Assembly: GCF_003852235.1 (NCBI RefSeq) | Contig: NZ_CP027732.1 | Span: 4,712,001 to 4,776,000, forward strand | Source: Pseudomonas sp. R4-35-07 | GTDB lineage: Bacteria > Pseudomonadota > Gammaproteobacteria > Pseudomonadales > Pseudomonadaceae | DNA length: 64,000 nucleotides | Reading direction: 5' to 3' | Part shown: piece after piece, positions 42,988 to 62,146 of the stretch | Position numbering within the stretch: position 1 is the first letter of the stretch | How the letters are laid out: the number at the start of each line of letters is the position of its first letter | Notes under the pieces: model-generated | Database searches by the model: none | What the model saw: the letters and a program-made list of their open reading frames with translations, nothing else | What the model was told of the DNA's origin: nothing | Translations under genes and position numbers: made by a program

Positions 42988-45158
<2,171 letters not shown>

Positions 45159-45224
45159 GATGGGGTTCGTCTAGCAGGGCCGGGAAGTCTAGCGGAAATA
45201 GTCACAATTGACCATGAAACGTGA

Positions 45225-45253
45225 TTGACCAACGGTAATCTCATCTCTATACT
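45225..45253 (+). promoter_or_regulatory. Promoter of tRNA-Leu
   Basis: -35 TTGACC (45225-45230), exactly 17 bases, -10 TATACT (45248-45253), 13 bases before the tRNA gene. Near-consensus sigma-70 elements at the right place. Confidence 0.85.
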
Positions 45254-45266
45254 TCGCCGCCATTGA

Positions 45267-45351
45267 GCCCTGATGGCGGAATTGGTAGACGCGGCGGATT
45301 CAAAATCCGTTTTCGAAAGGAGTGGGAGTTCGAGTCTCCCTCGGGGCACCA
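45267..45351 (+). tRNA. tRNA-Leu (anticodon CAA)
   Basis: 85 bases including an encoded CCA. Acceptor stem GCCCTGA/TCGGGGC, anticodon stem-loop GGATTCAAAATCC with CAA, long variable arm (TTTTCGAAAGGAGT) typical of class II tRNAs, and T-arm GGGAGTTCGAGTCTCCC. Reads UUG codons. It borders an accessory region, a usual place for island integration. Confidence 0.96.
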
Positions 45352-45354
45352 TCT

Positions 45355-45390
45355 TAAAAAAAGACCTTGAAATTCAAGGTCTTTTTTTTC
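45355..45390 (+). terminator. Terminator of tRNA-Leu
   Basis: AAGACCTTGA-AAT-TCAAGGTCTT with a T-run of nine, directly after the tRNA. Confidence 0.93.
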
Positions 45391-45517
45391 GTCTGTAGAA
45401 AAGTGGGTGGTCGGCTGATTCATCGCTCACCGCCCACTCCGAGCCTGAAACACAGTCCAAATGTGGGAGCTGGCTTGCCTGCGATTGCGTCAGCCCCAAC
45501 ACCCTCAAACCACCTGC

Positions 45518-45826
45518 CTACGCCCCAACCGAATCCCCCTCCTCCGTCACCCCATTCGGCAACATACCATTCGCCAAATCATCCACCACCGCCTTAGCCA
45601 TCTCACCCAAATAATGCGCGGCCCAGGCAAAACGATCCGCGCCTGTATCCATCGCCGCATCCAATGCCAGCATTTTTGAACAGTGCAGAAGCTCGGAGGC
45701 ATGCTCCAAGGCATCGCGGATGGGCACGCCGGAATTGACGCGGAATAGACGGTGGAGGTTGGGCTGTTTGCCACAGGTGGAAAAGGTGATGACGCCGAGA
45801 GTTTTGTTGAGGGGTGGGTTGATCAT
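45518..45826 (-). CDS. DUF3077-like small protein
   Basis: 102 aa, soluble. Contains FRVNSGVPIRDALEHASELL and DRFAWAAHYLGEMAKAVVDD, the pattern of DUF3077/DUF6124 proteins, which are frequent and often multicopy in Pseudomonas, with unknown function. The start codon overlaps the stop of the 24-codon ORF upstream (ATGA), suggesting translational coupling, and the mRNA would carry a long structured leader. Confidence 0.8.
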   Translation of the reverse strand: MINPPLNKTLGVITFSTCGKQPNLHRLFRVNSGVPIRDALEHASELLHCSKMLALDAAMDTGADRFAWAAHYLGEMAKAVVDDLANGMLPNGVTEEGDSVGA

Positions 45827-45897
45827 TGGGCACCTCCGATCTGAGCGAAGGTGTCGATTGCGGTACTGCGAGGGTACGACCTATCAGAAACGCTCAT
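45823..45897 (-). CDS. 24-aa upstream ORF coupled to the DUF3077-like gene
   Basis: Encodes MSVSDRSYPRSTAIDTFAQI followed by GGAQ. It has a good ribosome binding site (AGGAG, 8 bases before ATG) and its TGA overlaps the next ATG. Could be a short partner peptide or simply a translational relay to the downstream gene. Confidence 0.6.
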   Translation of the reverse strand: MSVSDRSYPRSTAIDTFAQIGGAQ

Positions 45898-46130
45898 TGC
45901 TTAAGCTCCTAGTGTAGTGAGCTGCCACGTTCGTTTCTCATGCGAATGGGTGGCAGCTATGCGCGGGTTGAGAAACCGGGACAATAGGAACCCGGCAGAC
46001 CCGAAGATCTCCCACGCATAGCCGCCATTACACAGACATGCGGGCACAAAAAAGCGCCAACAGTCTAATGGATGGTGGCGTCTATGCGCCTATTGTTTCT
46101 CGGATTCTCAAGTCCGGTCGCTGGGTTGGA
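45898..46130 (-). promoter_or_regulatory. Structured 5' leader of the DUF3077-like unit
   Basis: On the minus-strand transcript, 46026-46015 pairs with 45963-45952 in a 12-bp stem (one G-U) enclosing two small hairpins (AGATC-TTCG-GGTCT and CCGGG...CCCGG). The 3' arm of that stem overlaps 45957-45950 (GCTGCCAC), which can instead pair with 45928-45921 (GTGGCAGC) close to the AGGAG site. A stem-plus-T6 element (about 46080-46048) looks like a terminator earlier in the leader. The two alternatives exclude each other, as in riboswitches and attenuators. Ligand or trigger unknown. Confidence 0.55.
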
Positions 46131-46360
46131 AGCGACGGAGGAAAGGTAGCGCAGGAGTGGTTGGGGCTGGAAGTCGGGATCTGTGGCGAGAAATTTCGAT
46201 GGGCCAGCAAATTATGATCTGACTCCGATTACCCGACGGAAAGTGCGTTCGCCAGATCCGTGACTTCGAGGCTCCTCAAGTCAATGGGGAGTTGAAGAAC
46301 TCCCTGCTGAGCTATTCCGCCACAGTTACGTTTGGGATTTATTTCTGCTTATCGCGGATG
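46131..46360. other. Gene-free stretch with small hairpins
   Basis: No ORF with coding character. Two clear hairpins on the plus strand: TGACTT...AAGTCA (46261-46283) and GGGAGTT-GAAG-AACTCCC (46287-46304). These could be part of a longer retron RNA or the end of an older element. Otherwise nothing recognised. Confidence 0.4.
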
Positions 46361-46639
46361 AGGGCGACGCTTCTCGTTTCCGCGGCTACCTCAGGCTATG
46401 CAGTGCCCGCATGGGCACTGTTTGTTACATGCTTATCCGACTCGCTAGTGGCAAAACGCTAGTTTCCTTTGCAATGGTCTGGCGGTAGAGGTATAAACAG
46501 GTTGCTGGACGTACCGTCCAGGTGCTCTTTAAACATGGTGAATATTCTCTGGGCTTGCAGTTGGTGGTTGGGAAACTAACCGGCTTTGGTGTTCTTCAAA
46601 GCTACCTCTCCGCAACGACTCAGTCCCTTAGGTCGTCCT
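46361..46639 (+). ncRNA. Candidate retron msr-msd RNA
   Basis: This interval before the accessory gene and RT has the elements expected of a retron template: short hairpins CAGTGCCC-GCAT-GGGCACTG (46401-46420, followed by TTTGTT) and CTAGTG-GCAAAA-CGCTAG (46445-46462, followed by TTTCC), then a long-range stem between 46482-46493 and 46603-46613 (11 bp, one bulged T) enclosing a perfect 7-bp hairpin at 46505-46521. The ends AGGGCGAC (46361-46368) and GTCGTCCT (46632-46639) can pair over 8 bp with one G-U and could be the a1/a2 repeats. The boundaries and the branching G are guesses. Confidence 0.45.
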
Positions 46640-46801
46640 ATGTGTGTCCTGTGCTTGGGCCGCGCGTCATCGAGGTGTTCTGCGTTAGCGTTGGCTCTAT
46701 GCGCTGACTAATCGCTCCTCGTTAACGTAAAGCTGTCGGTTTACGCAATTGACATATGTTGACGGATGAATTCTACGGTGACGGATTTGGCGGCGGCGAC
46801 G

Positions 46802-46835
46802 GCTTATCGATATTGATAAATCAATATCAATAAGC
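46802..46835. repeat. 34-base near-perfect palindrome before the retron genes
   Basis: GCTTAT-C-GATATTGAT-AA-ATCAATATC-A-ATAAGC: 15 of 16 arm positions pair. AT-rich in contrast to its surroundings and 91 bases before the accessory ORF. Could be an operator or an RNA stem. Confidence 0.8.
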
Positions 46836-46925
46836 AGAACTGTGGTTTGTAGTGGTGTCTTGGAAGTTCCATTCGGCCCGGAATGCTTTGGCGGCGGCAA
46901 TTTCGCCGGCGAAGGAGCTACAACC

Positions 46926-47177
46926 ATGCGTAAGATGAAACCAGTCCGTTCTCGGACTATTCTGAAAAAGCACAATATCCAAGACACCCGCGTTACAGTT
47001 GATAGTGAACGTCCTCATAGCAACGAAGGAAAAGGCAGTCGGTTGAAAGGAATCCGCCAAGCGGTGGAAGGACTTCTGATTCGCCAAGCACTTTTGGAAA
47101 TTTGGGAACGTAAGCTGGAGTACTGGGATGGAGCCTGCGAAGCTGTAGGCAAAGTCCTTGAGGCTGTGTCCTCATGA
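46926..47177 (+). CDS. Small basic retron accessory protein, unassigned
   Basis: 83 aa, preceded by GAAGGAG. The N-terminal third is strongly basic and probably unstructured (MRKMKPVRSRTILKKHN); the C-terminal half is a long amphipathic helix (IRQAVEGLLIRQALLEIWER, then KLEYWDGACEAVGKVLEAV). No HTH, membrane segment, nuclease or ATPase motif. It lies between the non-coding region and the RT, the place where retrons keep their effector or accessory gene. An in-frame ATG at 46842 is less likely. I do not recognise the family. Confidence 0.7.
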   Translation: MRKMKPVRSRTILKKHNIQDTRVTVDSERPHSNEGKGSRLKGIRQAVEGLLIRQALLEIWERKLEYWDGACEAVGKVLEAVSS

Positions 47178-47204
47178 CGCAACAAATCACATCATTCGAA
47201 TTCT

Positions 47205-47240
47205 GAAAGGCCGATCTGAGTATCGGCCTTTCTTCGTTTT
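47205..47240 (+). terminator. Terminator-like hairpin between accessory gene and RT
   Basis: GAAAGGCCGAT-CTGAGT-ATCGGCCTTTC, an 11-bp perfect stem followed by TTCGTTTT. It would end most transcripts before the RT, which starts 13 bases further on. Confidence 0.8.
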
Positions 47241-47252
47241 AGGGATCGGAAT

Positions 47253-48263
47253 ATGGATGCTCCAACGTACCCTCTCAAGCCTATCCACAGCATCCAGGCG
47301 CTAGCTTTGGCGTTGGGTGAGAGCGAACGTCTGCTAGAGCGCCTTGCAGCTCGCGCTGATCGGATGTACCGCCACGTTCCTCAAGAGAAAAAAGGGAAGA
47401 AACGGGATACCTATGATGCACATGAGCCCCTAAAACGGGTACAGCGAAAGCTCGTGGATCGAATTCTCTCAAGAGCAATCTTCCCTAGGTACTTGCACGG
47501 CGGCATAAGAGATATCAAGACCCCCAGAAGTATTCTTAGTAATGCCGCACCCCATGCAGGCGCGAAATACGTCATTCTTCAGGATATTAAAAACTTTTAC
47601 CCCTCCATATCGGTGGATCAGGTCGAGGCCCTGTTTCGCGGGCTGTTTGGGTTTGGTGTACCCGTATCCGCTCTGCTGTCATCCATATGCACTCGCGAGG
47701 GAAGCACTCCTCAAGGGGCGAGCACGAGTGGCTACATCGCGAATCTGATATTTTGGGATGTTGAGCCGAAAATAGTTAGGAGCCTCCTCGACGATGGCTT
47801 CCAATACTCTCGATTCGCTGACGACATAACCATCTCATCTGGTCGGAAGCCATCGTCGGACGAGCTTTCGTTTATTGTTTCGACTGTCACAGGCATGCTG
47901 GCCTCTAAAGGGTGCCATCAGAAGCGGGCTAAGCTTCATATGCGGGTTCGAGGGCAGGGAATCAAGGAAGATGACCAAACCTTTAAACCGCTCACCGTAA
48001 CCGGATTAAGCGTCTATAACAGCGCTCCCGGGTTGACCAAGTTGGAGCGTAAGCGCATACGGTCAGCAGTCAGGGAATTGGAGATCGCGAGCGAGTCAGT
48101 ACGTGATTGGAACGTTCTTGAACCAATGTACCATCGAGCGATGGGGCGGGTAGGGCGTCTGCTCGCTTGCCGCCATCCAGATGGCGAAGCGTTGAAAGCT
48201 CGGCTTAATACATTGAAGCACTCACACCAAAAACCTTTACTGGAACGATATCAGCAAGTATGA
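47253..48263 (+). CDS. Retron-type reverse transcriptase
   Basis: 336 aa RT. Retron hallmarks: NAxxH at N97-H101 (SNAAPHAGAKYV), the metal-binding Asp111 in LQDIKNFYPSIS, PQGASTSGYIANL at 153-165, the catalytic FADD box at 188-191 (YSRFADDITISS; Phe replaces the usual Tyr), and VTG at 249-251 (LTVTGLSVYN). Retron RTs copy part of their own structured RNA into msDNA and, with an accessory protein, act in anti-phage defence. There is no fused domain and no maturase or endonuclease region, so a group II intron origin is unlikely. Confidence 0.92.
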   Translation: MDAPTYPLKPIHSIQALALALGESERLLERLAARADRMYRHVPQEKKGKKRDTYDAHEPLKRVQRKLVDRILSRAIFPRYLHGGIRDIKTPRSILSNAAPHAGAKYVILQDIKNFYPSISVDQVEALFRGLFGFGVPVSALLSSICTREGSTPQGASTSGYIANLIFWDVEPKIVRSLLDDGFQYSRFADDITISSGRKPSSDELSFIVSTVTGMLASKGCHQKRAKLHMRVRGQGIKEDDQTFKPLTVTGLSVYNSAPGLTKLERKRIRSAVRELEIASESVRDWNVLEPMYHRAMGRVGRLLACRHPDGEALKARLNTLKHSHQKPLLERYQQV

Positions 48264-49144: not shown

Positions 49145-49297
49145 GGTTGACCCGCTTTTCCATTAAGGTTTTGATTGCCTGCACTCAGTTAAACCGGACA
49201 TTAAAAGAGGACGGGGTTTCCAGAAAAAATGATCCGTTCCCTTTTCGGGTTTCCGATTGGGGTCCACCGGTCTTTCGACGAAGTAACATAGGAAATC

Positions 49298-49633
49298 ATG
49301 GCATTCACAGCTACCTGCGTTGTGTCCCTGTTTTTTTGGACTGTTGTTTCAGCAATCACAGGAACTAAAGAGCCTTGGGACCTGGTTAGTTATTGGACGA
49401 TCATCTATCCCGCCGCGCTTGCTCTGTCAGCGATTCTTGGAGCCGTGTTAAAAAGCGCCCAGTGGTACGCAGGCGCCGTCGTAATGCTTGCTCAAATCCC
49501 CGTGGTGCTGGTTATTTCTGGTGCTTCCCCGTTGCTGGGCGTCGGTATCCTGTATGCGGCTGTTCTCTCAATTCCGGCGATAACGTTATCTTGGCTCGCC
49601 GGCAAAGTGCGGCAGGCTTACATCACGCCATAA
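49298..49633 (+). CDS. Small membrane protein of unknown function
   Basis: 111 aa with four predicted hydrophobic helices (TCVVSLFFWTVVSAIT, YWTIIYPAALALSAILGAV, WYAGAVVMLAQIPVVLVIS, LLGVGILYAAVLSIPAITLS). ATG preceded by ATAGGAAATC. No recognised family. Confidence 0.6.
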   Translation: MAFTATCVVSLFFWTVVSAITGTKEPWDLVSYWTIIYPAALALSAILGAVLKSAQWYAGAVVMLAQIPVVLVISGASPLLGVGILYAAVLSIPAITLSWLAGKVRQAYITP

Positions 49634-49703
49634 AGCCCTGGTGGTTCTTTCTTAAAAATTAGACGGCTGGAAAATAGTCGCTGAAGCTATGAACCCAGCG
49701 CCC

Positions 49704-50075
49704 TCATTCAGGCTTGGCGTCAGGCACCCACAATGTGCACGATGTTGCGGCCTGGGCGATCAGCCAATCATGATCACGTTTGGCGAGGGGCCGTGGCATC
49801 CCGGCAGAGACCCGAAGTGCCATTCTGTGGGCACCCGTGACTTCGCTTTCACTCGGGGTCGCCTCCCCCAGTTTTGTATTGTTCTTGAGCCCGCCAATGG
49901 CACCATGCAGTGCGAGCGCCTGTTTGTAGGTGTCGGCACTCTCTTCAACGATAGATACCGCGATAAAGGCGGCATTTGAGCAGCGATCCATCTTTTCCCA
50001 CTGCTTCAGCTGCGCTTCTGTGCCGAGGGCGGCCGCTGATGACAACAAGACCATAAAGCCAATTAAACAACGCAT
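49704..50075 (-). CDS. Small secreted hypothetical protein
   Basis: 123 aa from MRCLIGFMVLLSSAAALGTE, with a good ribosome binding site (GGGAGG). Signal peptide cleaved near ALG-TE. The mature part is helical (LKQWEKMDRCSNAAFIAVSI, ESADTYKQALALHGAIGGLK) with two Cys that could form a disulfide. Unknown function. Confidence 0.65.
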   Translation of the reverse strand: MRCLIGFMVLLSSAAALGTEAQLKQWEKMDRCSNAAFIAVSIVEESADTYKQALALHGAIGGLKNNTKLGEATPSESEVTGAHRMALRVSAGMPRPLAKRDHDWLIAQAATSCTLWVPDAKPE

Positions 50076-50265
50076 TGTTTGCCTCCCTTCAAATAATTGA
50101 CCGCTGTAATACCTCATCAAAAGCTGGCGAGCAATATGGGCAACACTTACACCACGTATCCCATAAGCCTCTAACAACTGCCAAACGCTTCACAACAAGG
50201 GGTCTTTTTTTTCACGCGCAGAACAGTGATCATCGCCCTCCCCTAAAGCCCCAGGAACAGAGACC

Positions 50266-50595
50266 ATGGAATTGACGCTGGAAGCGGTTGCGCTCTTTGC
50301 ACTGAAGCTGGTGCACGAGACAGACGGCGGCAGTCCGGTTTTGCGGGATGATCCGGTGATGCAAGCGTATGACCGCGAGGTGTTTGGGTTGTTGGTGCGC
50401 CAGGGGGATGTAGAGACGATTCAGCTCAAAATCGATGAGTGCATCAGGCAGGCGCTGACTGCACTGGGTGGAACCGATACGGTAATGGGGCGCGAACTGC
50501 AACGACTGGCAACCGCCGTACACAATACGGACCAGCTCGACGCACTGGTCGCACCGCTAACCACCCTCAAGGACTACCTGAAAGACATCCAGTGA
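50266..50595 (+). CDS. Hypothetical helical protein
   Basis: 109 aa, soluble, predicted all-helical (MELTLEAVALFALKLVHETD, LKIDECIRQALTALGG). AGGAACAGAGACC precedes the ATG. Its 3' end overlaps the convergent LysE gene by 39 bases. No family recognised. Confidence 0.6.
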   Translation: MELTLEAVALFALKLVHETDGGSPVLRDDPVMQAYDREVFGLLVRQGDVETIQLKIDECIRQALTALGGTDTVMGRELQRLATAVHNTDQLDALVAPLTTLKDYLKDIQ

Positions 50596-51204
50596 ATCGG
50601 TGATCAGCATTCCGGCGAGATACACCATCAACACCGCCACGCCAGCATCCAGCCAGCGCCACACCACCGGCGTCCGAAACAACCTCGTCAAGCGCTGACA
50701 GCCAAGCGCCAACACTACAAACCACAGTAGCGACGCGGTCATCGCCCCCGTCGCAAAGAGTGCTTGCTGGCCTGCCGGTTTAGCGGCACCGATCGAGCCG
50801 ATCAGCACGACGGTATCGAGCCACGCGTAGGGGTTGGCAAAACCCAGCACCATCGCCGCACGCAACAGCCCTCGTTGCGAATGGCCGACTTGGGTATCCG
50901 GCATGGACTGGTCACGCAGGCAAGCCAGCAGGCGCTGTCCACCGAACCACAGCAAATAGGCCGCACCGGAAAGTAGCAAGAGCGCTACCAGATTGGGACG
51001 GCTGTCCAATAGCGAACCCAAACCTGTGATGCCTACGGCGATCAACAGCATATCGGAGACGACGCAGACGGCGACCACTCCCCAGATGGGACCACGGCTG
51101 ACACCTTGGCGGATGACCAAGGTGTCTTTCGGGCCTGGGGCTGCGAACAGACCGATGCCCAGGAGCAGGCCTTCGAGGTAGAGCGCGTTGAAGTAAGGAA
51201 ACAT
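50557..51204 (-). CDS. LysE/ArgO-type amino acid exporter
   Basis: 215 aa, six predicted membrane helices. Start MFPYFNALYLEGLLLGIGLF; FAAPGPKDTLVIRQGVSRG is the LysE N-terminal signature and GFANPYAWLDTVVLIGS the second-half NPxAxLD motif typical of LysE/ArgO (basic amino acid export). It is followed by no partner. About 3 kb away are two further LysE-superfamily genes beside the halogenase. Confidence 0.88.
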   Translation of the reverse strand: MFPYFNALYLEGLLLGIGLFAAPGPKDTLVIRQGVSRGPIWGVVAVCVVSDMLLIAVGITGLGSLLDSRPNLVALLLLSGAAYLLWFGGQRLLACLRDQSMPDTQVGHSQRGLLRAAMVLGFANPYAWLDTVVLIGSIGAAKPAGQQALFATGAMTASLLWFVVLALGCQRLTRLFRTPVVWRWLDAGVAVLMVYLAGMLITDSLDVFQVVLEGG

Positions 51205-51342
51205 GGAATGTTCGACTCCCGACGGGAAAAGCTCGTCAGTGGCTGTTCCGGCAGATGTAAAGGAATGCAACACACACTAGGTTCGCAAGCATGTGAGAAA
51301 CCGCGACACTGGATATAGCCAACCAAAAATAGGGACCTATCC

Positions 51343-51474
51343 ATGTCCTTCACAACGTCGCCAGCTGGGAGTAAGTGTGCCTTGCTCATTACGCGTAGTG
51401 GCGAGCAGGTTGTTCTTTTTGGTGAACAAGGTGAGCAGCCTCACCGAGGACTGGGGGATCACAACCGAATATGA
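51343..51474 (+). CDS. Possible 43-aa ORF overlapping the XRE gene start
   Basis: Encodes MSFTTSPAGSKCALLITRSG, EQVVLFGEQGEQPHRG and a short tail. AGGGA lies 8 bases before ATG, and its stop overlaps the next ATG (ATGA). The sequence is protein-like but I know no homolog; it may only relay translation. Confidence 0.35.
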   Translation: MSFTTSPAGSKCALLITRSGEQVVLFGEQGEQPHRGLGDHNRI

Positions 51475-52253
51475 GTATCAAGACACGCGACACCCTCCGA
51501 GCCCTGGTCGTACGGCGCAGCCGGGAACTGGGTAAGTCCATGACAACCCTGGCCAAGGAGGCCGGCATTTCCCGGACCTACCTATATGGGCTGGCAGGCG
51601 GCGCCTCACAAGATCCGTCGGTACGCACATTGATCAAACTGGCCAAAGTGCTGCAGGTTTCCCCGCTGCTGCTGTTCCGTTACTTCGCCGATTTGGCGGG
51701 CGCTCCGGTTGACTCCAACTCAATGGCGACCACCAACCGGGCTGTAGGCCTGCGTGATTCAAGCGACATCGCCGTCTTCAACGCAGACGTCACCACGCCC
51801 GACCAGACCGTCGTGCTGCCTGGCGAAATTTTTCAGAAAACATGGGAGATCCAGAACCTCGGCACACGCCCGTGGCTGGGTCGAAAACTGGTACGCGTTG
51901 ACGGTGAATATGTCATAGCCCGACGCACCGCCATGGGCGCGCCATTGGAAGTCGTGATGGACACGTACCTGCGCAGCCTTAACAACGAAACCCTCATCGC
52001 AGAAACACTGCCTGGGCAACCGATGCATATCACTGTGGAATTCGCCGCGTCCAAGGAAACCTGCGCAGTCACTTTCATCTGGCGGATCGAGGATGAACAC
52101 GGGCAACCGTGCTACGCGCCTGAGTTCATTTTGCATGTGATCGTAAACGTGATGGCGCGCGGAACTACGATTATCAATTTATGCGCGTCACAACAAGCAT
52201 TTGACTTTTTAAACATCTCTAAGCAAAGCAACAAAAAGTTTAAAAGACCTTAA
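51471..52253 (+). CDS. XRE regulator with NBR1-Ig-like domain
   Basis: 260 aa. N-terminal helix-turn-helix (about 8-70: TLRALVVRRSRELGKSMTTL, GISRTYLYGLAGG). C-terminal beta-sandwich (about 105-235) with FQKTWEIQNLGTRPWLGRKL and GQPMHITVEFAASKETCAV, the pattern of the NBR1 (Next-to-BRCA1) Ig-like domain found in some bacterial regulators and extracellular proteins. The extra tail is Lys/Asn-rich. Probably a sensor-repressor for nearby genes; ligand unknown. Confidence 0.8.
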   Translation: MSIKTRDTLRALVVRRSRELGKSMTTLAKEAGISRTYLYGLAGGASQDPSVRTLIKLAKVLQVSPLLLFRYFADLAGAPVDSNSMATTNRAVGLRDSSDIAVFNADVTTPDQTVVLPGEIFQKTWEIQNLGTRPWLGRKLVRVDGEYVIARRTAMGAPLEVVMDTYLRSLNNETLIAETLPGQPMHITVEFAASKETCAVTFIWRIEDEHGQPCYAPEFILHVIVNVMARGTTIINLCASQQAFDFLNISKQSNKKFKRP

Positions 52254-52308: not shown

Positions 52309-52764
52309 TCAGAGTGCAGGCAGTTTCCGCTCAACAGTTTTTATTATTGAAGTATTGGTATCGGCTAATCGCGTCATCTGCTGGAGGGTTTGATCCAGGT
52401 GCTGTACAGAATCAACATAAAGATGACAGACAAAACTGTCATCACCCGTGATTTTGTAACAGAGGACACACTCCTCAAGGTTCTTGATCAACTCCTCAAT
52501 CTCTTGAAACTTTCCCGGCAATGGTTTTACCCGAACCAGTGCCTGTAGCGCATATCCTAAAGCCTGCGCATCCAGTTCGACACTGAACCCGGAAATGACC
52601 CCCGCGACCTCCAGACGTTTGAGACGCTCGCTGCAGCCGGGAGCAGACAGACCCACTTGACGACTGAGCGCTCGGATGGAGGTCCTAGAGTTTTCGTAGA
52701 GAGCCAAAATAAGGGCGCGATCAATGGGGTCCAATTTTTGAGCGCTTTTTGTAAGCTTTTTCAT
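52309..52764 (-). CDS. Lrp/AsnC-family regulator
   Basis: 151 aa. HTH (LDPIDRALILALYENSRTSI, VGLSAPGCSERLKRLEV) and C-terminal RAM domain (about 80-150) that binds amino acids in this family. Start MKKLTKSAQKLDPID. Divergent from the halogenase gene with a 183-base AT-rich spacer, a layout typical of a local regulator that responds to the amino acid handled by its neighbours. Confidence 0.9.
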   Translation of the reverse strand: MKKLTKSAQKLDPIDRALILALYENSRTSIRALSRQVGLSAPGCSERLKRLEVAGVISGFSVELDAQALGYALQALVRVKPLPGKFQEIEELIKNLEECVLCYKITGDDSFVCHLYVDSVQHLDQTLQQMTRLADTNTSIIKTVERKLPAL

Positions 52765-52947
52765 ACGATGGGCCTTACGAAAATTAAAGAAATCACATGA
52801 AAACCTTACATACCATGGATTCATAAAAAAATAATAGATTTTTTGTAAATTGGCTCCTATTGTTTTTTCAAACGGTCACCCGCAGTACCGCCAGGCAGCA
52901 AGGCATACATTGCCTATATTTCAGTTTAAACCTTTAGAGGAATTGAA

Positions 52948-53712
52948 ATGAATCATGCACTCGATGCTACTACTCTGCAAAAACACCACGACGACAATTT
53001 CCCTGAAGAGCGGATATTCTTACTGCGCAATGAGTTTGCCCGAAATGGATTTATAAAATTGCGGGATATCGTAGACGACACCTTGCGTCAGCGCATCACC
53101 AATGAAGTCCATGGACTTATCGACCGTCAGATTGAAAGGAGGGACTTACACCTGGCGACTACCGATAATACACCGCGATACATGAGTGTCGTTCGCAGCG
53201 AGTTTATATCGGAAAACAGCGCAATTATAAGCACTCTATCCAAAAGTGAAGTATTACTCAACACACTGTCCTTGATTGCAGATACCAATATTGTCGCTTC
53301 AGTCTCCAAGGATGAAGAATACCTGATCACCAGACAGGAGCGTAAAGGTGACACTCATGGCTGGCATTGGGGCGATTACAGTTTTGCACTGATCTGGATT
53401 ATCGAGACGCCACCCATTTCCAAAGGCGGGATGCTTCAGTGCGTTCCTCACACCACGTGGGATAAATCCAATCCCAGGATTCACGAAATCCTGTGCAATA
53501 ATCCGATTGCCACTTATGGCTTTACAACTGGCGATATTTATTTTCTGCGTACTGACACGACCCTCCATCGCACTATTCCACTCAATGAAGATGCCATTCG
53601 AATCATTCTTAACATGACATGGGCAGATGAAAAATACCTCGACAGAAACCTGCACGGTAATGATCGGTGGTGGGAGAACCAACATGCTGAGGCTGCTAAA
53701 AGCCTGACTTGA
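52948..53712 (+). CDS. Fe(II)/2-oxoglutarate radical halogenase (BesD/Hal type), free amino acid
   Basis: 254 aa. The facial triad reads H140-W-G142 (THGWHWGDYSFALIWI) with distal H207 (TTLHRTIPL) and the 2OG-binding Arg218 (AIRIILNMTW). Gly in place of the usual Asp is the halogenase signature, leaving a site for chloride; hydroxylases of this family keep HxD. R77, E123, H137, D143, N222, T224, W241 and W242 all fall where I recall the substrate contacts of the lysine halogenase BesD, so a lysine- or ornithine-like free amino acid is the likely substrate. First gene of a four-gene cluster; ATG follows AGAGGAATTGAA. Confidence 0.8.
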   Translation: MNHALDATTLQKHHDDNFPEERIFLLRNEFARNGFIKLRDIVDDTLRQRITNEVHGLIDRQIERRDLHLATTDNTPRYMSVVRSEFISENSAIISTLSKSEVLLNTLSLIADTNIVASVSKDEEYLITRQERKGDTHGWHWGDYSFALIWIIETPPISKGGMLQCVPHTTWDKSNPRIHEILCNNPIATYGFTTGDIYFLRTDTTLHRTIPLNEDAIRIILNMTWADEKYLDRNLHGNDRWWENQHAEAAKSLT

Positions 53713-53755: not shown

Positions 53756-55072
53756 ATGCACGATGCCCAATGCCTTCAGAACGCCAGCGTGTTATTAAAA
53801 CAAGCTCAGTCACACTCCGCCATGGCCGACCTGGTAAGAGCCGCCGTTACACGAAATGAGCAGTGGCGTGGGCAACAGTGCATCAACCTTGTGGCAGCTG
53901 AGTCACCGACCAGCCCGTCCGTGCGCGCACTCCTTTCCAGTGAAGTGGGAACACGCGCATCGGGCGGGCATATCGGCCGGGACAATCGTTTTTTTTCAGG
54001 GATGAAGAATATCGATGAACTGGAATCGTTGTGTGTGGAACTCCTGAAGATGACATTTGATGCCAAGTACGCCGACCATAGACTGATGGGTGGGATGGCA
54101 GCGGTACTTGCTGCTTACACTGCACTGACTCGACCCGAAGACAACGTCATGACGGTGCCAGTGATAAGGGGTGGAGATACTAGCAACAGGACAAATGGTC
54201 CTCCGGGCGTCAGAGGGCTGAAAGTCTGGGACATTCCGTTTATCCACAAAACCGGCGAGATCGACCTTAATCGGTTTAGTGAGATTGCCCATGATCTGAA
54301 ACCAGCTGTAATCGGACTAGGAATGACGCTCACGCTGTTTGCGCTTCCTATCAAGGACATAAAAGGTATCGTTTCGCCCTGGGGTGGGAAAGTGTATTTC
54401 GACGCTGCCCATCAACTCGGCCTGATCAGTTCTGGTCTATTTCAAAATCCCCTCGAAGAAGGAGCGGACTTGATGACTGGATCTTCCGGAAAAACATTCA
54501 GTGGCCCACAAGGAGGGATTATTGCCTGGAACGATCCCGAATTGACAGCGCCCATCAACACGGCGATTTTCCCTACTCTGACTGGCAGCCACCAAATCAA
54601 TCGCGTGGCCGCGCTCGCCGTGGCGGCAACCGAATTGCTGGAGTACGGGACCGTCTACATGGCGCAGGTGGTTCGCAACGCCCAAGCACTTGCAAGCTCT
54701 CTTGATAAGCTAGGGGTAACGGCGTTTTATCGGGAGCAAGGCTATACCCAAACTCATCAGATTGTTATTGATTCAAAACCTTTTGATTGCGGTCGCGATG
54801 CTGTCCAACGCCTAGAGGCAGCCAATATCATTGCCAATGAAATGCCCCTACCCTGGGATATCGACCCTTACAAAGAAACAGGTATTCGATTAGGCACCGT
54901 TGAAGTGACTCGCCTGGGAATGAAAGAGATAGAAATGGAGTGGATCGCCGAGAAGATTGCAAAGATTTTACTACACCGGGAAGACCCGATGGCGGTGGCA
55001 AATAGTGTAATCGATTTCATGAAGAATTATAGAACGGTGTACTACTGTCACGAACATGGATTACCCCACTAG
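53756..55072 (+). CDS. SHMT-like PLP enzyme (aldolase/transaldolase type)
   Basis: 438 aa fold-type I PLP enzyme related to serine hydroxymethyltransferase and L-threonine transaldolases. Seen: E49 (NLVAAESPTSPSV), D216/H219 (YFDAAHQLGL), PLP Lys246 in TGSSGKTFSGPQGG, R378 for the carboxylate (GIRLGTVEVTR). In SHMT the residue before Lys is His (THK); here it is Gly, arguing against ordinary SHMT. Its place between the halogenase and two exporters suggests C-C bond making or breaking on the halogenated amino acid, e.g. a beta-hydroxy amino acid reaction. Substrate unknown. Confidence 0.78.
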   Translation: MHDAQCLQNASVLLKQAQSHSAMADLVRAAVTRNEQWRGQQCINLVAAESPTSPSVRALLSSEVGTRASGGHIGRDNRFFSGMKNIDELESLCVELLKMTFDAKYADHRLMGGMAAVLAAYTALTRPEDNVMTVPVIRGGDTSNRTNGPPGVRGLKVWDIPFIHKTGEIDLNRFSEIAHDLKPAVIGLGMTLTLFALPIKDIKGIVSPWGGKVYFDAAHQLGLISSGLFQNPLEEGADLMTGSSGKTFSGPQGGIIAWNDPELTAPINTAIFPTLTGSHQINRVAALAVAATELLEYGTVYMAQVVRNAQALASSLDKLGVTAFYREQGYTQTHQIVIDSKPFDCGRDAVQRLEAANIIANEMPLPWDIDPYKETGIRLGTVEVTRLGMKEIEMEWIAEKIAKILLHREDPMAVANSVIDFMKNYRTVYYCHEHGLPH

Positions 55073-55103: not shown

Positions 55104-55721
55104 ATGCCCGAAACTCTATTTTCTATTTATCAGGCGACGCTGACATTCGCCATTGCCGCCATCGCGCTTCTCGCCAGTCCCGGTCCGGCCACCCTGGCCC
55201 TGGCTGCGAGTGGCGCCGCCTATGGCATGAAGCGCTCTATTCAATTTTTCGTGGGTATTACCGTGGGATTGGTCATCGCCATGGCAGTAGTCTCCACGGG
55301 GCTGTATGTCTTTGTGCACAGTTTTCCCTTATTGGGCGTTGGTCTCGCTGGAGTATCCATTCTTTACATTCTTTATCTGGCTTATACCATTGCTGCGGCC
55401 CCCCCGATTAACGATGAGCAAACAGCGGTAAGTCCAGGGCTGGGTGCGGGTTTTGTGCTGGGTGTAGCAAACATTAAAGCGTACGCTGCCTTTGCTGCGT
55501 TACTAGGCAGTTTTACGTTAGGTGTTACGCCAACATGGGAGCTGTTTACCAAGGCGTCTATCTGTCTATTGGTTTGCGTGATATTCGATTTTTTCTGGCT
55601 TTTTGCGGGGAGCAAGCTCCGTAAATTATTCATTCACCCCACTTGGAGCCGAATACTTAACGTCAGCTTCGCGGTGCTAATGGTCGCGACGGTAGCGTGG
55701 TCATTTATGCTGACGGATTAA
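55104..55721 (+). CDS. LysE-family exporter 1 of the halogenase cluster
   Basis: 205 aa, six hydrophobic helices. ALLASPGPATLALAASGAAY is the LysE/RhtB entry motif and GFVLGVANIKAYAAFAALLG the second-half motif. ATG preceded by AGGAAACGTAA, 31 bases after the SHMT-like gene, so cotranscribed. Probably exports the cluster's product or clears a toxic analogue. Confidence 0.86.
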   Translation: MPETLFSIYQATLTFAIAAIALLASPGPATLALAASGAAYGMKRSIQFFVGITVGLVIAMAVVSTGLYVFVHSFPLLGVGLAGVSILYILYLAYTIAAAPPINDEQTAVSPGLGAGFVLGVANIKAYAAFAALLGSFTLGVTPTWELFTKASICLLVCVIFDFFWLFAGSKLRKLFIHPTWSRILNVSFAVLMVATVAWSFMLTD

Positions 55722-55777: not shown

Positions 55778-56371
55778 ATGCTAGCTACCCTTTCCGCCCT
55801 TTTACTACTATTAATAATACCCGGCCCCACTAACACGCTATTGTTCCGTGCAGGGGTGCTGTATGGGTTCAGCGTGTCGCAGCGCCTTGCCTTTATCGAA
55901 TCTCTTGCTTATCTGATTCAGGTATCGCTGTGGGGATTCACATTACTCTACCTATCGGCATACTCTCCTTTGACCGTGAAAATCGTCCAATTTAGCGCAG
56001 CATGCTATCTCCTTTATATTTCTTATAAGCTGTGGCAACGCGAAAACAGCATAACCAACACAGCCAAGGATCGGTTCTCCGGGCCTTATTTTTTCCTGCT
56101 GACATTGATGAATCCTAAAGGCCTTCTGACCGTTTCATTTATTGCTCCAATTCATACCTTCACTGAGTTGGAGAGCTACGTAGAATTCATGGCGGCTCTC
56201 TTGTTGGTGACTATTTCAGTGGGATCTGCCTGGATATTTTTTGGTGCTCGATTTAAAGGCTTCCATCAAACGCGGTTTACCACTCTGAAGATCAACCGGG
56301 TCACGTCTGTCACCCTCTTTTGTTTTGCCTCAACGCTTATTGGTCGCCTGGCCGGTTCGGTTTTGAACTAA
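55778..56371 (+). CDS. LysE-family exporter 2 of the halogenase cluster
   Basis: 197 aa with the LysE superfamily fold: LLLLIIPGPTNTLLFRAGVLYG and LLTLMNPKGLLTVSFIAPIH. It has a near-perfect ribosome binding site (TAAGGAGG). More diverged from the neighbouring exporter than a simple duplication would be. Last gene of the cluster. Confidence 0.84.
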   Translation: MLATLSALLLLLIIPGPTNTLLFRAGVLYGFSVSQRLAFIESLAYLIQVSLWGFTLLYLSAYSPLTVKIVQFSAACYLLYISYKLWQRENSITNTAKDRFSGPYFFLLTLMNPKGLLTVSFIAPIHTFTELESYVEFMAALLLVTISVGSAWIFFGARFKGFHQTRFTTLKINRVTSVTLFCFASTLIGRLAGSVLN

Positions 56372-56477: not shown

Positions 56478-57113
56478 CTACCGCCGCCCTTCCACTGCCA
56501 TCCGCACCGCCAACCCCATCAACACCGACCCCATCAGCAAGCGCTGCACCACCTGCCACCCCGGCCGGGTGACGAAAAACACTGCGATAGACCCCGCCAG
56601 CGTGGCAATCACCGCATTCACGCTCACGCTGATGAGAATCTGCGTGAAACCCAGCACCAGGGATTGCATCAGCACGCTGCCGTGGCCGTTCGGGTCGATG
56701 AACTGCGGCAGCAACGACAGGTACATCACCGCCACCTTGGGGTTCAGCAGGTTGGTCACCAGGCCCATGGTGAATAGTTTGCGCGGGCTGTCCTGGGGCA
56801 GGCGCTGCACCTGGAACGGCGAGCGGGCACCCGGTTTGATCGCCTGCCAGGCCAGATAAGCCAGGTACAGCGCCCCGCCAAAGCGCAGGGCGTCGTACGC
56901 AAAGGGCACCGCCATGACCAGCGCGGTAATACCCAAGGCCGCGCACAGCATATAAACCAAAAAACCCAACGCAACGCCGCCCAGGGAAATAAAACCGGCG
57001 GTGCGCCCCTGGCAAATCGAGCGCGAAATGAGATAAATCATGTTCGGGCCGGGCGTCAGCACCATGCCGAGTGATATCAGCGCATAGGCAAGCCAGCTGG
57101 ACAGTTCAGGCAT
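56478..57113 (-). CDS. RhtB/LysE-family translocator
   Basis: 211 aa from MPELSSWLAYALISLGMVLT. MVLTPGPNMIYLISRSICQG and GLVTNLLNPKVAVMYLSLLP are the RhtB motifs. Convergent with the halogenase cluster, with GC-rich codon use unlike the cluster genes, so it is probably a resident gene rather than part of the cluster. Confidence 0.88.
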   Translation of the reverse strand: MPELSSWLAYALISLGMVLTPGPNMIYLISRSICQGRTAGFISLGGVALGFLVYMLCAALGITALVMAVPFAYDALRFGGALYLAYLAWQAIKPGARSPFQVQRLPQDSPRKLFTMGLVTNLLNPKVAVMYLSLLPQFIDPNGHGSVLMQSLVLGFTQILISVSVNAVIATLAGSIAVFFVTRPGWQVVQRLLMGSVLMGLAVRMAVEGRR

Positions 57114-57248
57114 GGTCGGGCTCCCGAAATATGTGGTCAACGTTGCAGGGTTGGACGCCATGGTAGGGCGTTCAAAATGTGCGCGTCAGATACAGATTCG
57201 TGATCAAAACGTCATACACCGACCACACCGTTCACCAGAGGCAGGCAC

Positions 57249-58363: not shown

Positions 58364-59521
58364 ATGTCAGAACGTTTTTATCCACCGACTGAAGAACAGC
58401 TACGCAGGCAACGAATCCTGACCCCGCAACCGTCACGCGTGCCCTATTCGCCAGCGATTATTCCATTCGAGCCATCTCCTGCCCCGGCCCCCACGCCAGC
58501 CAAACCTCCCGGCTGCGTCTTCATCAAGCCCTGCCAATTGCCTGACGGCGTCACCCGTTACGCTGACTCCACCGGTTATGTCCCGCTGGAGTTGGTCAAG
58601 GAGTACGCGCATTTAAGCCTGTTGGGCGGGCGCGAGGTGGACGGGCGAGGCGCGGTGGCCTTGCGCAGGATCGGCGGGAGCACATTGCCCGCAGGCGTAG
58701 GGCAGTTGGCGTTGCGTTCGGCGGCTTGGGAGTCGGCGGTGACTGCCGCCGGCGCTGTCGCTGGTGGGCTGTTGACGGGGTTGGTGGCGCTTGCTTGGCC
58801 TTCTGAACTGGGTGATAGCGCGCTCTACAGCGAAGAACAGCTGCGCTCGATGGCGCGGTCGCAGATGCGTTTGCATATCGAGCAACGCGAGGACGGTACG
58901 CTCAAGGGGTATGGGTTTTACACCGGCAACCATCCGAACTGGCAGATGATCGATGTGGTGCAGTTCCAAAGCCGAGACGATCAGTTTGTGGCGGATTTGG
59001 GCGAGGGCGTTGAGCTGATCTGGACGCCTGCGGTTGATCCGGGGGACACGCTGGGTATTCCTGCATTGGAAGCTGCGCCGCAAGCGCCAGTGATCTGGAT
59101 TTACCCGCCGACGGAGAAGGCGGCGCAGATTTTGGTGAACCCAGTTTATCCGCCGGAGTATCGGGATTTTATTCTGGTGTTTCCGGCGGAGTCGGGGGTT
59201 CGGCCGTTGTATGTGGTGGTTAATGAGCCAAGGAAGGGGCTAAGAAGCCCAGATCATGATTACTTCCCTGCGCCCGAAACCGCAGACATAACAGGCTTCC
59301 CTGGTTTAATTCCCCAAAAGCCTGTGACACGAAGAAAAGGCGGAGCGGGCTTACGTGAACGATGGATAGACGCAAAAGGAAGGAAAATACTTGAATGGGA
59401 TTCCAAGAAAGGCGAGCTGGAAGTCTATCGAAACAGTGATTTAGAACACCTCGGTGCCTTTGACCCCTATACCGCCGAACGCCGAGGACCGGCTGACCCA
59501 AAACGCCGAATTTACCGATAA
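58364..59521 (+). CDS. S-type pyocin-domain protein with colicin E3-like rRNase domain
   Basis: 385 aa. N-terminal Pro-rich segment, an S-type pyocin middle region (about 50-300: CVFIKPCQLPDGVTRYADST, GLLTGLVALAWP, MIDVVQFQSRD, VIWIYPP), and a cytotoxic domain (about 315-385) that closely follows the E3 16S rRNase: EWDSKKGELEVYR, LEHLGAFDP and DPKRRIY. Mapping E3 catalytic residues: D510=D346, H513=K349 (substituted), E517=E353, R545=R381. No long coiled-coil receptor domain, so it is shorter than a complete colicin. An immunity gene follows after 15 bases. Confidence 0.88.
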   Translation: MSERFYPPTEEQLRRQRILTPQPSRVPYSPAIIPFEPSPAPAPTPAKPPGCVFIKPCQLPDGVTRYADSTGYVPLELVKEYAHLSLLGGREVDGRGAVALRRIGGSTLPAGVGQLALRSAAWESAVTAAGAVAGGLLTGLVALAWPSELGDSALYSEEQLRSMARSQMRLHIEQREDGTLKGYGFYTGNHPNWQMIDVVQFQSRDDQFVADLGEGVELIWTPAVDPGDTLGIPALEAAPQAPVIWIYPPTEKAAQILVNPVYPPEYRDFILVFPAESGVRPLYVVVNEPRKGLRSPDHDYFPAPETADITGFPGLIPQKPVTRRKGGAGLRERWIDAKGRKILEWDSKKGELEVYRNSDLEHLGAFDPYTAERRGPADPKRRIYR

Positions 59522-59536
59522 AGAGGAACATGGAAA

Positions 59537-59824
59537 ATGGTGATGAAAATCAGACTGCGGTGGTACGAAAAACACAGTAATAACTTGAAGGCGGATGAGT
59601 ATTCAGCGGATATCGAGGACTCAGACAGCATTCTCAAAGCGTTGGGTTTAGGCGAGGAAACCGCGATATATGCCGATGTATTCAATGTGCTGCCTAACTG
59701 GATAACGATTATTCAGCCATATTTCCAGCACATGATCGAACCCGACCACCTCGACTACCAGATTTCCTTCCGTTACCAAGGCGCGTGGCCACCGCCTCCA
59801 AATCAACCTAAGACGGGGTCTTGA
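59537..59824 (+). CDS. Cloacin/colicin E3-type immunity protein
   Basis: 95 aa, acidic. IRLRWYEKHSNNLKADEYSA, FNVLPNWITIIQPYFQHMIE and YQISFRYQGAW follow ImmE3/cloacin immunity proteins, which block the rRNase domain by binding it. ATGs at 59537 and 59543 are both possible starts. Its place directly after the toxin confirms the pair. Confidence 0.92.
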   Translation: MVMKIRLRWYEKHSNNLKADEYSADIEDSDSILKALGLGEETAIYADVFNVLPNWITIIQPYFQHMIEPDHLDYQISFRYQGAWPPPPNQPKTGS

Positions 59825-61531: not shown

Positions 61532-62146
61532 ATGCACTCAGAAGCCCATGACGTTGGTGCGCCATCCTTGTTGGAAACGTTGCGCACAGGCACCGGGCTG
61601 TTGCATGTCGCGCTGGAAAAGCGCCTGCCGTTTTTTTCCGAGCGCCTGGATACAGACTGGTACCGGCGCTTGCTCCAGGCCTACTACGGTTTCTATCAGC
61701 CGATGGAAGCGGCGCTGTATGACGGCCGCCTGATTCCCCATGGATATGACGCCGCATTGCGTACGAAAACGCCGACGCTGTTCAGTGATCTCCGCGCCCT
61801 CGGCCTGAATGAGCACACCATCAGCACCCTGCCCCGTTGCACCCGACTCCCGCCCCTGGACACCCCCGCTGCCTGCCTTGGCGCCTTGTATGTGCTGGAA
61901 GGCGCGACCCTCGGTGGGCAAGTGTTGCGCCGCGAAATAGCCCTGCGCCTGGGGATCGATGCCGACAACGGCGGTGCGTTTCTCGATATTTATGGCGCCG
62001 AGACCGGCCGACGCTGGAAAGAGTTTCTCGACTACCTGGGTCGCCTGCCGCTGGACACAACAGCCAGGGCTCGCGCAGTAATGGCCGCCCGCTCCACATT
62101 CAGCGGCTTTGAGCAATGGCTCGACAGCCAGGAGGTACTGCTATGA
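61532..62146 (+). CDS. bphO: Biliverdin-producing heme oxygenase
   Basis: 204 aa. Proximal heme His25 in TGLLHVALEKRLPFF; distal helix GALYVLEGATLGGQVLRREI with the family's Gly-rich kink. Splits heme to biliverdin, the chromophore of the downstream phytochrome. Its stop overlaps the bphP start (ATGA), so the two are translationally coupled. Confidence 0.94.
   Translation: MHSEAHDVGAPSLLETLRTGTGLLHVALEKRLPFFSERLDTDWYRRLLQAYYGFYQPMEAALYDGRLIPHGYDAALRTKTPTLFSDLRALGLNEHTISTLPRCTRLPPLDTPAACLGALYVLEGATLGGQVLRREIALRLGIDADNGGAFLDIYGAETGRRWKEFLDYLGRLPLDTTARARAVMAARSTFSGFEQWLDSQEVLL

What the first reader, a model, noticed from the sequence alone, without database searches (positions are those of the whole stretch)
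52948..53712. HxG-type amino acid halogenase in a fluorescent-group Pseudomonas
The 2OG-enzyme motif is H140-W-G142...H207. The Asp/Glu that normally ligates iron is Gly, the diagnostic change of Fe/2OG halogenases. Eight further positions (R77, E123, H137, D143, N222, T224, W241, W242) coincide at a constant offset with the substrate contacts I recall for the lysine halogenase BesD. This predicts direct chlorination of a free amino acid without a carrier protein. Motif seen in sequence; family knowledge: BesD/Hal enzymes; substrate inferred.
Basis: partly seen in the sequence, partly recalled or inferred. Interest (0 to 1): 0.87.

Follow-up and report, generated by a model that had tools for sequence, protein, structure and literature searches.

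The report
Lysine-chlorinating gene cassette in Pseudomonas
The gene encodes an iron enzyme that very probably chlorinates free lysine, and its neighbour, a repurposed serine-metabolism enzyme, probably removes the chlorine again to close a small ring, a two-step route to a strained amino acid that is already known from a related Pseudomonas.

Summary
The 254-aa protein at 52948-53712 has H140-W-G142 and H207 and is 54% identical (125 of 231 ungapped positions) to BesD, the L-lysine 4-chlorinase; 20 of 21 compared BesD positions agree, among them the lysine contacts named in PMC13244439. Downstream lies an SHMT-like PLP enzyme (53756-55072) that keeps the PLP lysine and the carboxylate arginine but has lost S35, Y55, E57, Y65, H126 and H228 of SHMT; two LysE-type exporters follow and a divergent Lrp-type regulator precedes. 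Halogenase, this PLP enzyme and LysE stand together in 15 of 56 related loci: Pseudomonas, Paraburkholderia, Legionella. Best explanation: a paz-type cassette, in which lysine is chlorinated at C4 and the PLP enzyme then displaces chloride to make a cyclopropane amino acid (pazamine, Sosa et al. 2024; only the title was seen, the chemistry is recalled). So: a new member of a known kind. Less expected: a divergent Legionella form, a single clade for the altered PLP enzyme, and a partner swap, since 3 of 3 tested loci without it carry a BesC-like oxidase next door.

The parts
52309..52764 (-). Lrp/AsnC-type regulator, divergent; start MKKL at 52764 more likely than the longest ORF start at 52824
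   Evidence: PF01037 and PF13404; MKKL start translated; present in 9 of 9 Pseudomonas and Paraburkholderia cassettes among the 56 named loci
52765..52947 (.). Divergent promoter region between regulator and halogenase
   Evidence: aligned with 8 other Pseudomonas loci: conserved blocks such as ACATACCA; no promoter match stands out from shuffles
52948..53712 (+). BesD-type Fe(II)/2OG halogenase, probable L-lysine 4-chlorinase (PazA-like)
53756..55072 (+). SHMT-like PLP enzyme with altered active site, probable cyclase (PazB-like)
   Evidence: PF00464; residue comparison with the genome's own GlyA; GGD clade
55104..55721 (+). LysE-type exporter
   Evidence: PF01810 7.7e-11; a LysE gene follows the PLP enzyme in 15 of 15 cassette loci
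55778..56371 (+). Second LysE-type exporter
   Evidence: PF01810 2.2e-07; found in 5 of the 8 named Pseudomonas cassettes

Best explanation
The finding is the first enzyme of a paz-type cassette. Step 1 (inferred from homology, strong): the halogenase binds free L-lysine, chloride, 2-oxoglutarate and O2 at a two-histidine iron site whose carboxylate ligand is replaced by Gly142, and puts chlorine on C4. Step 2 (inferred from active-site anatomy, neighbourhood and recalled literature): the SHMT-like enzyme binds 4-chlorolysine on PLP through K246, takes off the alpha proton and, having lost the folate and retro-aldol residues of SHMT, lets the alpha carbanion attack C4; chloride leaves and a cyclopropane amino acid, 1-amino-2-(2-aminoethyl)cyclopropane-1-carboxylate (pazamine), is formed. 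Step 3 (inferred): LysE-type exporters secrete it, and the Lrp-type protein controls the operon. Halogenation is thus cryptic: the final product carries no chlorine.
For: Halogenase: 54% identity to BesD, iron and lysine contacts kept, BesD branch of the tree; BesD chlorinates free L-lysine at C4 (PMC13244439, passage). PLP enzyme: K246, D216, H219 and R378 kept; S35, Y55, E57, Y65, H126 and H228 of GlyA replaced by A, A, G, F, D and G, while the genome has two ordinary GlyA elsewhere. Linkage: 8 of 8 intact BesD-type genes in 398 genomes of the genus have the PLP enzyme and Lrp gene beside them; halogenase, PLP enzyme and LysE adjoin in 15 of 56 named loci. Two decayed cassettes have lost the PLP enzyme together with half of the halogenase, and their genomes hold only GlyA-like relatives of it. 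Purifying selection on both genes (dN/dS about 0.06 and 0.04 against P. orientalis). Print: pazamine is cited in a review, and the title of Sosa et al. [quoted passage not shown]
Against: The original paper is not held, so the window proteins were not compared with PazA and PazB; that they are the same is inferred. The BesD equivalog cut-off is not reached. Position 120 differs from BesD. A solved hydroxylase lies inside the same BesD branch, so chemistry can change with few residues. No structure model could be made. On the halogenase tree the cassette carriers need 2 changes, not 1: Pseudomonas with Paraburkholderia, and Legionella, are separate groups.
Confidence: 0.78

Rival explanations
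1. The PLP enzyme eliminates HCl from 4-chlorolysine instead of closing a ring, giving a vinylglycine-type amino acid (3,4-dehydrolysine or an isomer) that would inhibit other PLP enzymes.
For: Loss of a gamma leaving group through PLP is common chemistry (recalled); the active-site letters fit alpha-proton removal without deciding what follows.
Against: The title of Sosa et al. 2024 speaks of strained amino acids made by a PLP enzyme through cryptic halogenation, and the neighbourhood fits it.
Confidence: 0.1
2. 4-Chlorolysine itself is the secreted product, and the PLP enzyme does something else (a serine or threonine aldol reaction, or a side reaction in glycine metabolism).
For: LysE-type exporters could carry chlorolysine; the PLP enzyme lies in the SHMT family.
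Against: Catalytic E57 and other SHMT residues are gone in the window protein; it scores below the SHMT cut-off (299 of 335 bits) and far below the fluorothreonine transaldolase cut-off (209 of 650); two true GlyA exist in the genome.
Confidence: 0.06
3. The first enzyme is a halogenase of another amino acid or carbon (ornithine, leucine, lysine C5), or a hydroxylase.
For: Close relatives include a lysine hydroxylase (9oet, 7jsd) and HalB, a lysine 5-chlorinase (PMC10187165, passage).
Against: Gly at 142, against Asp in the solved hydroxylase row; the window has the E123, T224, W241, W242 set of BesD, whereas HalB/HalD-like Pseudomonas rows differ at one or more of 224, 241 and 242; BesD branch.
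Confidence: 0.06

Closest known systems
paz pathway (PazA, PazB) for pazamine in Pseudomonas azotoformans, Sosa et al. 2024, doi 10.1002/anie.202319344 (title seen in reference lists; content recalled)
   Same: Lysine 4-halogenase followed by a PLP-dependent enzyme in a fluorescent-group Pseudomonas
   Different: Sequences could not be compared; exporters, Lrp regulator and the Legionella and Burkholderiales forms are described here from the genomes, and I do not know whether the paper covers them
BesD, L-lysine 4-chlorinase of Streptomyces cattleya (PDB 6nie)
   Same: 54% identity, iron, 2OG and lysine contacts
   Different: Other neighbourhood: no BesC-like oxidase in the cassette; below the NCBIfam BesD equivalog cut-off
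HalB and HalD (PDB 7u6i, 7u6h)
   Same: Same Pfam family, HxG motif
   Different: Weaker match (218.8 and 193.5 bits against 280.2 for BesD); HalB/HalD-like rows differ at 224, 241 or 242
Serine hydroxymethyltransferase GlyA, and the M. jannaschii SHMT (4uqv)
   Same: Fold family PF00464; PLP lysine, aspartate, histidine and carboxylate arginine kept; 4uqv is the best solved match, E 2.7e-78
   Different: S35, Y55, E57, Y65, H126, H228 replaced; 28-29% identity over the alignment type is not printed for this pair in a finished output other, which gives 28 and 29%

Membership tests
Fe(II)/2OG halogenase, BesD/HalD family (PF23169) | HxG...H iron motif without carboxylate ligand | tested here: met
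   H140, G142, H207
Fe(II)/2OG halogenase, BesD/HalD family (PF23169) | Profile match above the curated score | tested here: met
   PF23169 296.4 bits, cut-off 26
Fe(II)/2OG halogenase, BesD/HalD family (PF23169) | Halogenation of a free amino acid | not testable with these tools
   needs an assay
BesD as NCBIfam equivalog NF042920 | Score at or above the equivalog cut-off | tested here: not met
   319 of 450 bits; so related to BesD, not filed as BesD itself
bes (alkyne amino acid) pathway | BesC-like diiron oxidase next to the halogenase | tested here: not met
   none among the ten window genes scanned; found instead beside the halogenase in L033, L035 and L043 (PF14518)
paz (pazamine) pathway | Lysine halogenase gene next to a PLP-enzyme gene | tested here: met
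   window order, families, 15 of 56 named loci
paz (pazamine) pathway | Sequence identity to deposited PazA and PazB | not tested
   paper not held; sequences not at hand
paz (pazamine) pathway | Cyclopropane product from 4-chlorolysine | not testable with these tools
   needs an assay
Serine hydroxymethyltransferase | Catalytic E57 and folate-site tyrosines (roles recalled) | tested here: not met
   G70, A68, F80 in their places
Fluorothreonine transaldolase (TIGR04506) | Score at or above the equivalog cut-off | tested here: not met
   208.8 of 650 bits

The most novel reading that the evidence does not exclude
Lysine chlorination is an interchangeable first module. The altered SHMT-like enzyme arose once, spread in halogenase-cyclase-exporter cassettes to Pseudomonas, Burkholderiales, Legionella and uncultured bacteria, and alternates in evolution with a BesC-type oxidase as the second step. 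The Legionella cassettes (PLP enzyme 41-43% identical, LysR-type instead of Lrp-type regulator) would then make a strained lysine-derived amino acid, the same as pazamine or another one, in a genus for which my one search (Legionella with BesD and halogenase) found no such report.
Probability: 0.5. Interest if true: 0.55.

Novelty: new member of a known kind. Interest (0 to 1): 0.4.

Why it matters
Two genes, a halogenase and a remodelled SHMT, would turn lysine into a cyclopropane amino acid that resembles the ethylene precursor ACC (plant activity recalled from the paz work). The locus gives a sequence signature (Gly for Glu57 and Asp for His126 in an SHMT-like protein beside a BesD-type halogenase) by which proteins now named serine hydroxymethyltransferase can be recognised as probable cyclases, and it suggests that the partner gene predicts the fate of the chlorine.

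Tried and rejected
Rejected: hydroxylase (Gly142); HalB or HalD type; bes pathway (no BesC-like gene in the cassette; the heme oxygenase at 61532-62146 is PF01126, not PF14518); true SHMT. Led nowhere: ACC deaminase in the own genome, where the only match is below the cut-off (234.5 of 392 bits); promoter and terminator scan, close to the shuffled expectation (6 against 5.4 and 7 against 4.4); plasmid collection, where the 20 listed of 67 records match only the flanking LysE gene at 56478-57161. Paper searches: 10 done. 'PazB' gave no relevant paper; 'pazamine' gave one relevant paper among the 10 listed of 15, the others being about tirapazamine or similar (the relevant one checked). The library is open-licence only. 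Script failures. One search took wrong ORFs for the two GlyA; one search replaced it. Searches returned argument or record errors.

Control that weakens one side argument: equal contig lengths also occur twice between listed halogenases and H-type PLP proteins (2314 and 4418 bases), without a shared source (compared by eye).

Full report
What is there. The ORF 52948-53712 (+) encodes a 254-aa protein. Its nearest solved relatives are lysine halogenases: 9oer (E 6.5e-86) and BesD 6nie (1.3e-82); a lysine hydroxylase (7.1e-74), HalB (7.4e-64) and HalD (4e-56) follow. Pfam calls it HalD, PF23169. The motif H140-W-G142 with H207 is present, and the ligand position is Gly in 120 of the 120 listed homologues of 488 found. 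Against BesD 125 of 231 aligned positions are identical, and 20 of 21 compared positions agree; position 120 differs. The roles come from passages of PMC13244439: R77, H137, W241, D143, E123 and D239 hold lysine; N222 and R218 hold succinate; H140 and H207 hold iron.

Where it falls. A tree of 53 rows puts it in a BesD branch of 29 rows (100/99), inside a Pseudomonas-Paraburkholderia group of 10 (100/96); 18 rows like HalB or HalD form another branch (97/92) (these labels rest on similarity and recall). The solved HxD hydroxylase 9oet lies inside the BesD branch beside a Streptomyces row, away from the window protein. Long branches were flagged, and the order of groups inside the BesD branch is open.

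The neighbour. The gene at 53756-55072 belongs to the SHMT fold family (PF00464) but reaches neither the SHMT cut-off (299 of 335 bits) nor that of fluorothreonine transaldolase (209 of 650) in NCBIfam. The genome has two ordinary GlyA elsewhere, to which it is 28 and 29% identical. It keeps the PLP lysine K246, D216, H219 and the arginine R378, but S35, Y55, E57, Y65, H126 and H228 of GlyA are A48, A68, G70, F80, D141 and G245 (roles of GlyA residues are recalled). The 15 cassette proteins from other genomes in that alignment all have D at the H126 place; E57 is G in 14 and S in one (L040); H228 is G in 14 and R in one (L042). Among the 120 listed homologues of 2536 found, 40 have the D signature (one of them lacks the N-terminal sites) and 80 the H signature, with E (79) or D (1) at the E57 place. 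In a tree of 49 rows the 30 D-type proteins, Legionella included, form one side of a branch (97/94; 94% of 200 bootstrap trees) opposite the 19 H-type rows.

The cassette. Order and spacing: Lrp-type gene (divergent), halogenase, 43 bases, PLP enzyme, 31 bases, LysE, 56 bases, LysE (from the coordinates). In a sample of 398 genomes of the genus 23 hold a family member: 8 an intact BesD-type gene (the own genome included), 2 a decayed one, 13 a more distant one at 35-45% identity. All 8 intact ones have the Lrp gene and the PLP enzyme beside them. Among 56 named loci 15 have halogenase, then PLP enzyme, then a LysE gene: 8 Pseudomonas, Paraburkholderia heleia and 6 Legionella. In the two Legionella loci tested the divergent regulator is LysR-type. 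In 3 of 3 tested loci with a BesD-type gene but no such PLP enzyme (L033 and L035, cyanobacteria; L043, a gamma MAG) the next gene is a BesC-like iron oxidase, PF14518. In the protein lists pairs of halogenase and D-type PLP enzyme have the same longest-contig length and a shared source, for example 10940 bases (P0044, P0194), which suggests further carriers; two equal lengths also occur with H-type proteins, without a shared source. This was compared by eye and is only indicative.

Decay and mobility. P. reactans (L077) keeps regulator and exporters but has lost the stretch from within the halogenase to the start of the first exporter; Pseudomonas sp. MWU15-20650 (L072) keeps a halogenase remnant, the end of the first exporter and the second exporter ORF. 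Searched whole, these two genomes hold only GlyA-like relatives of the PLP enzyme (30-31% identity). Both share flanks with L025-L028, L030 and L047. The window and P. orientalis (L044) instead share the queA and tRNA-Leu side (window 44052-46197, 91%) and a piece at 49236-50337, but with the cassette in a different order relative to it. G+C is 0.45-0.51 over the cassette and 0.62 at the queA end. The spread looks horizontal (inference). Outside the genus close members are rare: in samples of 369 genomes of the class and 398 of the phylum the only close match is the own genome; the three other matches have 30-35% identity.

Mechanism. Shown: sequence, motif, conserved contacts, linkage, signature, purifying selection (dN/dS about 0.06 and 0.04 against P. 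orientalis; dS is saturated or not computable for several of the other pairs). Inferred: chlorination of free lysine at C4; an alpha carbanion on PLP; displacement of chloride inside the molecule giving a cyclopropane; export; regulation. Seen in print: BesD chlorinates free L-lysine at C4 (PMC13244439, passage); a review cites pazamine as a nonnatural amino acid (Sosa et al. 2024; passage); the title of that paper (reference lists). Recalled, not seen: PazA chlorinates lysine C4, PazB closes the cyclopropane, the host is P. azotoformans, and plants respond as if ethylene formation were inhibited.

Verdict. The locus as a whole is most likely a paz-type cassette and so a further member of a published pathway. 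On the halogenase tree the cassette carriers fall into two groups, so whether the cassette was assembled once or twice is open. The Legionella form, the single clade of the altered PLP enzyme and the partner swap with BesC-like oxidases are the parts that a specialist may find new.

Noticed in passing
L037, L039, L040, L041, L042, L055 (about 7.0-10.7 kb in each): Six Legionella species carry halogenase, D-type PLP enzyme and LysE in the same order; in the two tested (L055, L042) the divergent regulator is LysR-type.
   Followed up: partly
L033, L035, L043 (about 8.0-9.6 kb): BesD-type halogenase followed by a BesC-like iron oxidase (PF14518) in two cyanobacteria and a gamma MAG, without the altered PLP enzyme next door.
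   Followed up: partly
P0161-P0242 (most): A large family of SHMT-like proteins about 54% identical to the window enzyme, some named Chloroflexota, with Glu57 and His126 kept but Tyr55 and His228 lost; function unknown.
   Followed up: partly
L077, L072: Decayed cassettes that keep one or two LysE exporters after loss of the PLP enzyme, perhaps as self-protection without production.
   Followed up: partly
window 45267-48263: tRNA-Leu, a C4 antisense RNA (45946-46032, minus) and a retron-like reverse transcriptase (47253-48263; best PADLOC match RT_V): a likely integration hotspot.
   Followed up: no
window 50557-51273 and 56478-57161 (both minus): Two more LysE-family genes flank the cassette, making four within 7 kb.
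   Followed up: no
window 51471-52253: HTH_3 domain joined to an Ig-like N_BRCA1_IG domain (PF16158), an unusual pairing to my knowledge.
   Followed up: no
window 58364-59521: S-type pyocin with a Cytotoxic domain (PF06958, PF09000), followed by a small ORF at 59537-59824 that may be its immunity gene.
   Followed up: no
P0010, P0013, P0020, P0035: NCBI names several of these halogenases 'ArpA protein'; I do not know where that name comes from.
   Followed up: no
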